Position numbers and translations under genes: made by a program. The notes beneath the pieces are model-generated. The model did not search any database. It saw nothing but the letters and a program-made list of their open reading frames with translations, and was not told the DNA's origin. Shown here piece after piece: positions 24,101 through 47,384 of a stretch of 64,000 bases of DNA. Within the stretch, counting starts at the first letter, position 1, and the number at the start of each line of letters is the position of its first letter. The stretch covers positions 10,926,431 through 10,990,430 of the forward strand of contig OZ020264.1 of the NCBI GenBank assembly GCA_963971285.1, read 5' to 3'. Source of the stretch: Astropecten irregularis (Eukaryota; Echinodermata; Asteroidea; Paxillosida; Astropectinidae).

Positions 24101-26598
24101 TCAAGACAGGTTAACGCATGCTTGAAGATCCCGTCTGGTTCCCATTCGTGAAACCGAATCGACCTGTACCGTGTACGTCTTGGCACCAACGGTGAAGTCC
24201 AAGCTTACTGGAAACTCAGGATCTGTAGTACAAACCATTAATTGAATATTATCAATTAAAAAACAGCAACAAGTCTTGCATGATGTGTTCCAAAAGACAT
24301 GGGATTGTGAGAATGGACGACTTCAGAATTCCTATTTCGTCCCGATCCCCTGTTTTATTTGTGAACAATTTCACAGTCTTTGGGTAGCCGGAATTAGCAA
24401 AACATGCTTCCTTTTATTGGTTTAATGAAGACCAAATTTAGGACAAGTTGTTGTGTAAAACCCATTCTCTACGACGACGTGATATTATCTTGCTGGTGAT
24501 TCAGATGTATAAAATATACTAATTGTTTTCAGGTTTTGGGAAAAAAAGCGAACTAAATCACTATACAAGCCAAGAATGGGAGACTTTGGAGCTGGGTCTT
24601 CAACTTGACAGCGCAAGCGCACAATAACGTGCGCATGCTCACATTTTCGCGCATGCTCACAGCTACCAAAAAAACAGACTTCAGTCTGCCGCCGCCAACG
24701 TCTCAAAAGTCTCCCATTGGAACTTCACTTTTGAGCATGTGGGTGAAAACGTCGTATGTGGTATCCGATAACATAGTCGCAACTCGCAAACACAGTGGTT
24801 GATTTACTTTATAACATTTTTTCTTACCTTTTTTGGTGACGGATTCGAGGAGCCTCACGCTCATGTCATAAACCATGATCTTCAGCTCATTTTCGTTGTC
24901 CATGAAGATGACATCAATAACTGCAGAATATGGGTTAAACAGAAGTACTTTGGGAAATTGTCTTCACATTGTCTTTATATTTTCTAATTTAAATTATTGC
25001 ATGTTGGTGTAGTTTTTCGTGAATATGAATAATAATGACAGTAATAAACTGCTCATCGGCCCATAAATGTATCGGAATGTATCAAATGCTTGGCGTTAGG
25101 GGGCCTGACGCTTTTCGATTCTGGCAGGATCTTTCTCAAAGGTTTAAGACTTTTAGCCTTTGAGAAAGATCATGCTGTATGATCGAAACGCATCAAACCC
25201 TCCTACTCAAAGCATTAAACAAATTAAAGTGAATTGGGCCTACGCTTATTTCCAGTGGAACTAATTGGTTCGGCACTCATACTGGGGCAAGTTGTATTGG
25301 TATTTTAGAATATATCTTTCGAGTATGGACACAAACCATGCTGGGGTTGGAGAAAGAAAATTACACTGTTATTTTTGAGACAATTTTTTGTAATAAAACT
25401 AGAGATAATGAGCTTAAGAGATGATTAATGTATCTGTGCAAAAGAAATCCACAGGAATATCAAAGAAACACTCACTTCTGTCCAATACGTTATATGAACA
25501 AGTTGAGGCCAAGCAGTACCGATCATCTGCATCAAGCAAGTTAAGGTTACACCGTGAAGATGTCGCTGAAACGTTAAAAATGCAAAGTCAAAGTCTGATT
25601 AGTTACATCGCCATCTCATAGGGCGTTTACGAAACGGAGGCTCAGGCTCAGGCTCAGGCTCAGGCTCAGGCTCAGGCTCAGGCTCAGGCTCAGGCTCCGG
25701 CTCAGGCTCAGGCTCAGGCTCAGGCTCAGGCTCAGGCTCAGGCTCAGGCTCAGGCTCAGGCTCAGGCTCCAGCTCTGACATTCATATTATGCTGAAAATA
25801 GGTTGTGGATTTTCATTGAAGCTGAAGCTTTTCTAGAGAATCTACTTCAGAATTAACCGCAGCCAAAAGCCTCTATTTTGATACCCGTTATTTCAGAATG
25901 GATTCACGAAATGGACGGAGACCGAACGTCCGTTTCGTACGTAAACGACAATAATGTTGGACGCGTTGTTTAGAAGAAATGCACAAGTTGTTAATGTGTT
26001 ATTCTTTCGTATAACATTGAGTTCTTCTCACCGATTTTCTTCTTCATCTCCAGAAGTGTATGAAGACGTTTAATGAGAGCCTTCTCATCAAGATCCTCCT
26101 ATTTGAATACAAGCACATAGAAGCCAATTAATAGAAAACTGATCGCGGGCCAATTTTGTGGAGCTGCTCAGCACAAAAAAATTACATTTTGTTATTCATG
26201 GTCAGCTAACAACAGCCAAAGCACAATTACAAGCGATACACGGCACATGGAAATTTGGTTGTTAACCCTGTTTCTATTATCACACAAATGTCATGCTTAG
26301 CACATTTTTGTTCTAAGCAGTGCCGTGAAATTGGCCCCGGGACATCAAGTTATGACATAAACCTCAATTTTTTATTTTTGTGATAAAGTACGTTTGGATT
26401 AAAAATGCTTCATACTGCATTCGACTCTTGGGGTCAGTTTGCAATGGGATTTGTGTTTGTGATGGGTAATTTCCGTATATTTCGCACTCAATTTTGTTAT
26501 TCTGAAAAAGTAACAATTCTTACCTTCAGGGAAGCGGCATTTACAGCACAGGACAGAATGAGGCAGACTGCCAATGCAGACATCGCAAATCGAAACAT
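24101..26598 (-). CDS. Secreted cysteine-containing protein, gene A (five exons, 148 residues)
   Basis: Exons, in coding order: 26598-26524, 26098-26032, 25565-25476, 24920-24828 and 24222-24101 (stop 24103-24101). They total 447 bp with junction phases 0,1,1,1. Exon 1 is exactly a signal peptide ([20 protein letters not shown]...). Exon 2 encodes a charged amphipathic helix with a dibasic site ([15 protein letters not shown]). Exon 3 carries three cysteines ([13 protein letters not shown], then C four residues on). Exons 4 and 5 look beta-rich; exon 5 starts [10 protein letters not shown] and ends QACVNLS. I recognise no known domain. The product should be a secreted protein of about 125 residues with four cysteines, perhaps two disulfides. 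It is a paralogue of genes B, C and D. Function is unknown; defence, reproductive or venom-like secreted families show the same pattern of conserved leader and diverged body, but nothing here proves a role. The introns hold four MITE-type repeats. Confidence 0.85.
24575..24718. repeat. AATGGGAGA-family MITE, gene A intron 4
   Basis: Begins AATGGGAGACTTTGGAG and ends TCTCAAAAGTCTCCCATT, with paired GTGCGCATGCTCACA-type internal arms. The equivalent position in gene B holds the copy at 31730-31877. Confidence 0.85.
25030..25215. repeat. TTTCGATCCTAGCAGGATC-family fold-back, gene A intron 3
   Basis: AAACTGCTCATCGGCCCATA, then GGCCTGACGCTTTTCGATTC, followed by the inverted half GATCGAAACGCATCAAACCC. 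The same element is at 32300-32485 in gene B. Confidence 0.75.
25621..25948. repeat. (GGCTCA)n-bearing MITE, most expanded full-length copy, gene A intron 2
   Basis: Starts GGGCGTTTACGAAACGGAGG. A 22-unit GGCTCA array (25639-25770, one GGCTCC interruption) follows, then the family body, ending ACGTCCGTTTCGTACGTAAA. The right terminal repeat has a small insertion (GTACGTAAACG). The gene B intron 2 copy is at 32896. Confidence 0.9.
26146..26340. repeat. Palindromic MITE with CGGGCCAATTTT ends, gene A intron 1
   Basis: Left CGGGCCAATTTTGTGGAGCT pairs with right GCCGTGAAATTGGCCCCG; inner arms CTGCTCAGCACAAAAA and TTTTTGTTCTAAGCAGTG also pair. It has no counterpart in gene B intron 1, so it was gained in A or lost in B after duplication. 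Confidence 0.75.

Positions 26599-47384: not shown

What the first reader, a model, noticed from the sequence alone, without database searches (positions are those of the whole stretch)
24101..47384. Unrecognised five-exon secreted protein family, four intact members and one remnant
Genes A, B, C and D share exon count, phases (0,1,1,1), a one-exon signal peptide, an amphipathic exon 2 with a Lys-Arg pair, C-x(11,12)-C-x4-C in exon 3, DPxFPV at the start of exon 5 and (A/P)CVNL near the end. I know of no named domain with this combination. All four reading frames close exactly when spliced (447, 450, 453 and 525 bp), which argues for real, maintained genes.
Basis: partly seen in the sequence, partly recalled or inferred. 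Interest (0 to 1): 0.9.

Follow-up and report, generated by a model that had tools for sequence, protein, structure and literature searches.

The report
Fast-evolving sea star secreted protein cluster
A sea star chromosome carries one small cluster of four related genes for secreted proteins that match no family in the libraries searched; all four begin with nearly the same secretion leader, while the rest of each protein has changed fast, a pattern often seen in defence or recognition proteins, although what they do is not known.

Summary
Four five-exon genes (A, B on -, C, D on +) splice at GT..AG in phases 0,1,1,1 into 447, 450, 453 and 525 bp frames. Exon lengths differ between copies only by multiples of 3 (18 of 18; introns 8 of 24). 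The host is an asteroid. No credible relative was found in Pfam, NCBIfam, the PDB or a 5.8-billion-protein collection. In the 476 Mb genome, matches lie only here, apart from one chance-level hit.

Two findings are new. D shares DNA with A, B and C only over a leader block (start of exon 1 through most of exon 2, with intron 1), plus one dispersed repeat. In A versus B, mature-region replacements exceed intron divergence (22.8% against 16.2%, p=0.012, one pair of six): a marginal sign of diversifying selection.

Exon 2 is not more amphipathic than shuffles. The remnant is a gene unit lacking exons 1-4.

Best explanation: preproproteins releasing disulfide-bonded, beta-rich secreted proteins, most likely defence effectors. 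Expression, processing and function are untested.

The parts
24101..26598 (-). Gene A: exons 26524-26598, 26032-26098, 25476-25565, 24828-24920, 24101-24222; 148 aa
28852..28973 (-). Remnant: lone exon 5 copy (open frame, acceptor and stop intact), 121 of 122 identical to exon 5 of gene B; lies downstream of B on the same strand, so it could be an alternative last exon of B (untested)
27944..29765 (-). Truncated third gene unit that carries the remnant: 3' flank, exon 5 and part of intron 4 (27944-29082, 80% to 30206-31364 of unit B), then upstream sequence of unit B type (29130-29738, 82-90% to 34438-35166)
31116..33698 (-). Gene B: exons 33624-33698, 33372-33435, 32745-32840, 31956-32048, 31116-31237; 149 aa
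38285..40905 (+). Gene C: exons 38285-38359, 38948-39014, 39666-39755, 40260-40352, 40778-40905; 150 aa
44685..47384 (+). Gene D: exons 44685-44759, 44964-45033, 45734-45838, 46576-46707, 47242-47384; 174 aa, two extra cysteines in exon 4
44672..45024 (+). Leader block of gene D: 13 bases before the ATG, signal exon, intron 1 and most of exon 2; the only stretch of D with DNA similarity to the other genes (E up to 1e-4) apart from a dispersed repeat at 46827-46968
33400..33711 (-). Matching leader block of gene B (79.4% over 335 columns to D)
26038..26608 (-). Matching leader block of gene A (78-79% to D, with about 220 extra bases in intron 1)
38275..39007 (+). Matching leader block of gene C (90% over 131 columns and 72% over 155 columns to D; most of intron 1 does not match)

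Best explanation
A single-locus family of secreted preproproteins in an asteroid. Shown here: four intact gene frames, one shared leader (signal exon, short acidic stretch ending in Lys-Arg), and a mature part of 112-138 residues with four conserved cysteines (six in D). Also shown: leader and mature part have different histories. Inferred: the signal peptide is removed near residue 21-22; a convertase may cut after Lys-Arg 35-36; the mature part folds into a disulfide-held, beta-rich domain (exons 4 and 5 each a hairpin). It is released into coelomic fluid, mucus or another secretion, where it binds a changing target. The most likely role is host defence. The cluster evolves by tandem duplication, deletion and exchange of the leader module.
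For: Intact frames and splice sites in 4 of 4; 18 of 18 exon-length differences in multiples of 3. Leader: signal-exon replacements 1-4 of about 56 sites against 23-43% of sites in the mature part, p from 1e-4 to 5e-9 in 6 of 6 pairs. Leader exchange: intron 1 of D aligns over nearly its whole length to intron 1 of A (E 8e-23) and B (1e-35), while introns 2-4 of D match nothing in the same introns of A, B or C (none in 9 of 9). In exon 1, A is closer to C and D (4 differences each) than to B (6), although A and B are the closest pair elsewhere. Fast change: A/B mature replacements 64.5 of 282 sites against intron differences 206 of 1274 (p=0.012), silent 13.5 of 84 equal to intron (p=0.88). 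Extra cysteines come as a pair in D. Hairpins: exon 5 strands 6-12 and 15-21, pLDDT 70; exon 4 strands 3-9 and 12-18 with a short helix, pLDDT 68. Leader block found in four genes in the genome, all here.
Against: No expression, processing or activity data. The excess of replacements rests on one pair, uncorrected for six: bootstrap of Ka>Ks for A/B leaves P=0.076, and the other five pairs have mature Ka/Ks of 0.51-1.02, C/D showing clear constraint. Silent conservation of exon 1 is significant in 2 of 6 pairs only (A/D, C/D). Intron 1 of C matches D only in patches of 56 and 27 columns. No strict NF-kB-type or AP-1 site in the 1 kb upstream, 0 of 4 genes each (weak test). Exon 2 is not distinctly amphipathic. 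The Lys-Arg lacks the upstream Arg of a furin site (read from the sequence; rule recalled), so cleavage is uncertain. The two structure models are short single-exon pieces of middling confidence.
Confidence: 0.4

Rival explanations
1. A reproductive or signalling role: the proteins are gamete-surface, spawning or attraction proteins, which also evolve fast and arise by tandem duplication.
For: Same sequence pattern: small secreted cysteine-bearing proteins with conserved leader and fast mature part; one locus in the genome.
Against: Nothing here points to gonad rather than immune tissue; no named family of any kind matched.
Confidence: 0.25
2. A structural or carrier protein of coelomic fluid, skeleton or adhesive secretion; the fast change reflects relaxed constraint, not an arms race.
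For: Mature Ka/Ks near 1 in several pairs; beta-hairpin exons.
Against: Cysteines, DPxFPV and CVNL are kept in 4 of 4 and indels keep frame, so constraint is real; A/B replacements exceed the intron rate.
Confidence: 0.2
3. A divergent branch of a known fold or family (for example a cystatin-like or other small beta domain) that sequence searches cannot see. This can be true together with any of the roles.
For: Possible order helix (exon 2), strand (exon 3), hairpin, hairpin; the protein searches reach only relatives sharing short exact words (searches scored 1999 and 23 candidates).
Against: No significant profile hit in Pfam, NCBIfam or PDB; the cysteine spacing differs from cystatin and cathelin disulfides as I recall them.
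Confidence: 0.35
4. Non-expressed gene relics.
For: No transcript data held; one unit has already lost exons 1-4; C carries a 136-base TGT array that stops 31 bases short of exon 5.
Against: Four open frames, 16 of 16 GT..AG introns, 18 of 18 frame-keeping length differences.
Confidence: 0.05

Closest known systems
KARTESH and CHUPA peptides of Asterias rubens (PMC11891777; passages read)
   Same: Sea star; signal peptide, then an acidic region, then a convertase site, then a four-cysteine mature part; small families with cysteines kept and loops variable.
   Different: Their predicted mature peptides are 28-30 and 35-48 residues; these are 112-138. KASH2 is not among the PDB chains listed for the family profile. 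Exon structure of KARTESH and CHUPA not known to me.
Conotoxin precursor genes (PMC3862624; abstract and section list seen)
   Same: Introns conserved within a superfamily; [quoted passage not shown] The conserved leader is recalled.
   Different: Two or three exons, short toxin peptides, cone snails. No relation claimed, and nothing here shows a toxin.
Echinoid antimicrobial precursors strongylocins and centrocins (PMC4805251; listing and start of abstract only)
   Same: Echinoderm secreted peptides.
   Different: By recall, shorter cationic peptides with other cysteine patterns; no direct sequence test was run.
Lystars, three-finger proteins of Asterias rubens (PMC9410279 and PMC11595613; listing and start of abstract)
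   Same: Small beta-structured sea star proteins in several copies.
   Different: The LU domain has four conserved disulfides; A, B, C have four mature cysteines and D six. No LU match in Pfam.

Membership tests
KARTESH/CHUPA | signal peptide, acidic region, dibasic site before the cysteine region | tested here: met
   The stretch of exon 2 before KR has net charge -1 to -3 in 4 of 4; layout. Signal peptide judged by eye, no predictor run; cleavage not shown.
KARTESH/CHUPA | mature peptide of 28-48 residues with four cysteines | tested here: not met
   112, 113, 114 and 138 residues after KR; four cysteines in A-C, six in D.
KARTESH/CHUPA | sequence relation to KASH2 (PDB 8V2M, 8V2U) | tested here: inconclusive
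   Profile A1 against PDB chains at E up to 10 listed 7 sequences, none of them KASH2. I did not check that 8V2M is in the copy, and so short a chain is a weak target. CHUPA sequences were not compared.
Three-finger (Ly6/uPAR) proteins | four conserved disulfides, that is at least eight cysteines | tested here: not met
   Four or six mature cysteines; no Pfam match.
Strongylocins/centrocins | cysteine pattern and cationic mature peptide | not tested
   Their sequences were not fetched; only listed.
Cystatin fold | one helix packed on a four to five stranded sheet | not testable with these tools
   By its stated rule the structure tool takes no spliced protein; single exons 4 and 5 gave hairpins.
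Any Pfam, NCBIfam or PDB family | profile match above the curated cut-off or E below 0.001 | tested here: not met
   Best Pfam E 0.031 (14.5 bits, cut-off 26); NCBIfam best 0.14; PDB best 0.13 with the profile and 0.21 with D; mature parts of B and D alone 0 families.

The most novel reading that the evidence does not exclude
An asteroid-restricted immune (or gamete) recognition family in which one leader cassette (signal exon, intron 1 and acidic pro-part) is copied by gene conversion onto diverging mature domains, so that the precursor is a standard delivery module with an exchangeable payload, as in venom families but in an echinoderm and perhaps with a new small fold.
Probability: 0.2. Interest if true: 0.65.

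Novelty: new variant of a known kind. Interest (0 to 1): 0.42.

Why it matters
Small, fast-evolving secreted proteins are where immune, reproductive and venom functions often hide, and they are the genes that homology-based annotation misses. Here is a compact natural series (four genes, one locus, one far-diverged member) in which leader and payload have separate histories, testable with RNA-seq and a few sea star genomes. If the mature domains are antimicrobial or recognition proteins, this adds an effector family to the asteroids. If not, it is one more orphan family.

Tried and rejected
Known families: Pfam, NCBIfam, PDB by sequence and by profile, and the large protein collection twice, all without a credible match. 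The weak rows were taken as chance: two Pfam DUFs at E 0.031 and 0.11, one NCBIfam at 0.14, and PDB rows (a bornavirus phosphoprotein, two fluorescent proteins, poxvirus F1 proteins, scIg12, and envelope glycoprotein L) at E 0.13 to 2.

Intron identities (69-89%) were rejected: the loose gap costs give about 75% even for introns with no detectable relation. The stricter count and the local BLAST replace them. In one search the gap filter dropped exon 2 and part of exon 3 from the A/B count; the replacement test uses all aligned codons.

My own first reading, that the exon 5 copy came from a partial duplication and was no gene remnant, was dropped: the unit also holds upstream sequence of gene B type, so loss of exons 1-4 from a third unit, or an unequal exchange with the same result, fits better.

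Degenerate DNA pattern for DPxFPV over the genome: 91 places (49 forward, 42 reverse) against 241 for the reversed control; five of the 91 are the family copies in this window, so the pattern is not specific. I did not inspect the other 86.

Upstream motif scan, 1 kb of each gene: strict NF-kB-type and AP-1 sites 0 of 4 genes; a looser kB pattern 1, 1, 1 and 3 against 0.7-1.2 expected. Rfam: no match in 22000-50000. Phage collection: none for 44000-47600. Literature: seven searches, one of them for five peptide strings of the family (0 papers); passages of two sea star papers. None describes this family, but the library holds open-licence papers only, and the listings beyond those passages were not read.

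Full report
Origin. The window lies at C29:10926431-10990430 of a 475.7 Mb genome in 168 contigs. Its galactose-3-O-sulfotransferase ORF (60275-61321) has its five best hits, of 278 (120 listed), in Patiria miniata (best 59%) and Acanthaster planci (best 50%), so the host is an asteroid, of a species not identified here. Pfam places an MFS transporter at 738-1703, alkaline phosphatase exons at 5544-10738 (-) and 15473-22872 (+) on the left, and the sulfotransferase on the right (one of the ten ORFs scanned, 21823-22122, had no match). One search also shows that the protein collection holds sea star proteins, although a conserved enzyme is an easy control.

Gene models. Exons were located by exact match and spliced. 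All 16 introns are GT..AG, phases are 0,1,1,1, and the frames are 447, 450, 453 and 525 bp. Pairwise exon lengths differ in 18 cases, all multiples of three; intron lengths differ in 24 cases, 8 of them multiples of three, as expected by chance. These comparisons are not independent, since the four genes share history. The alignment has 55 invariant columns, among them four mature cysteines, Lys35-Arg36, the fixed residues of DPxFPV and CVNL. D has two further cysteines in exon 4, six in all; A, B and C carry an Asn-Leu-Ser sequon at CVNL, D does not.

Leader and payload have separate histories. Signal-exon replacements are 1 to 4 per pair against 23-43% of sites in the mature part (6 of 6 pairs, p at most 1.2e-4). 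Silent sites of exon 1 are also alike between A and D (0 of 18.8) and C and D (1 of 18.5), while the rest of these pairs has 40 of 87 and 48 of 89 (p 5e-5 and 7e-5), so protein constraint alone does not explain it. The other four pairs are not significant (A/C p=0.067; the three with B 0.2-0.34), and A/D has four replacements with no silent change in exon 1. Intron 1 of D aligns with intron 1 of A and B over nearly its whole length, with C only in patches of 56 and 27 columns; introns 2, 3 and 4 of D show no match to the same introns of the other three (none in 9 of 9). Over the whole genes, D matches the others from 10-13 bases before the ATG to about residue 12 (B) or 20 (A, C) of exon 2, and nowhere else except a dispersed repeat at 46827-46968. 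A, B and C also share about 137 bases or more of upstream DNA and 160 bases or more beyond the stop. The leader block was found in four genes in the genome, all here. The simplest account is gene conversion or module transfer of the leader between D and the A/B/C line; unusual constraint on intron 1 is the rival.

Rate of change. A and B, the closest pair, can be aligned through their introns: 1068 of 1274 intron columns identical (84%) against 230 of 292 retained columns of exons 2-5 (79%; p=0.047). In the other five pairs the introns are less alike than the exons. By codons, A/B replacements are 64.5 of 282 sites and silent changes 13.5 of 84; silent equals intron (p=0.88) and replacement exceeds intron (p=0.012), with Ka/Ks 1.5 and bootstrap P(Ka<=Ks)=0.076. 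This is one pair of six, without correction. Over the other pairs mature Ka/Ks is 0.51-1.02. I read this as a fixed framework with fast-changing positions; positive selection is likely but not proven.

The fifth copy. The lone exon 5 (28852-28973) sits in a truncated third unit between A and B. Its 3' flank, exon and 109 bases of intron 4 (27944-29082) match unit B at 80%; 47 bases further on begins sequence (29130-29738) that matches the upstream region of B from about 740 bases before its ATG, at 82-90%. So exons 1-4 and the near promoter are gone, by deletion or unequal exchange, and 'remnant' is a fair word. The exon is 121 of 122 identical to exon 5 of B and 100 of 122 to that of A, far closer to B than its surroundings are; recent conversion or use as an alternative last exon of B could explain that. 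Neither is tested.

Scope in the genome. Five answered searches of the whole genome with family sequence (D, C, the mature part of B, the leader DNA of D, the mature part of D) gave 10, 15, 11, 5 and 4 matches. All 45 rows lie in this cluster except one at C22:543765-543842 with E 3.1 and two stops, taken as chance. The tool scores only its best candidates, so very diverged copies could be missed.

Shape and processing. The first 25 residues look like a signal peptide with a cleavage site near residue 21-22 by the -3,-1 rule (recalled; no predictor was run). The stretch of exon 2 before Lys-Arg has net charge -1 to -3. Contiguous exon 5 and exon 4 gave two-stranded hairpins at mean pLDDT 70 and 68, pTM 0.37 and 0.27, consistent with a beta-rich domain but too short to name a fold; no fold search was run. 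Exon 2 has no unusual hydrophobic moment.

Function. Layout and evolution resemble two things. KARTESH and CHUPA of Asterias rubens have signal, acidic region, convertase site and four cysteines; the passages read say that they rise after injury and that homologues are known from echinoderms only. Conotoxin genes have conserved introns and a fast mature exon (abstract). The first fails as a family on length; the second is an analogy of mode only. I commit to secreted defence effectors as the most likely role (0.4), with reproduction or signalling next (0.25). No step beyond gene structure and sequence evolution is shown.

Verdict. A genuine single-locus family, undescribed as far as these searches reach, with an informative history and of moderate interest until expression or orthologues are known.

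Noticed in passing
38020-38236: Two tandem copies (107 bp, 98%) of the stretch just upstream of gene C, with 48 bases between its end and the ATG: a duplicated promoter-proximal region.
   Followed up: no
40611-40746: A 136-base TGT array with 31 bases between its end and exon 5 of gene C; gene B has a shorter array (31275-31304) near its exon 5.
   Followed up: no
25638-25769 and 32922-33005: AGGCTC hexanucleotide arrays (22 and 14 copies) in intron 2 of A and B; a short one at 22072-22100 and a similar repeat near 12.7 kb; possibly part of a dispersed element.
   Followed up: no
5544-10738 (-) and 15473-22872 (+): Two alkaline phosphatase genes in opposite orientation, seen as separate exons with Pfam matches.
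   Followed up: partly
43083-43245: A 22-bp tandem repeat, 7.4 copies, about 1.4 kb upstream of gene D.
   Followed up: no
48597-49072: A 187-bp tandem repeat (2.6 copies) downstream of gene D, purine-rich.
   Followed up: no
35288-35651, 36970-37340, 39816-40145, 46827-46968: A dispersed repeat in both orientations, including inside intron 3 of C and intron 4 of D and between B and C.
   Followed up: no
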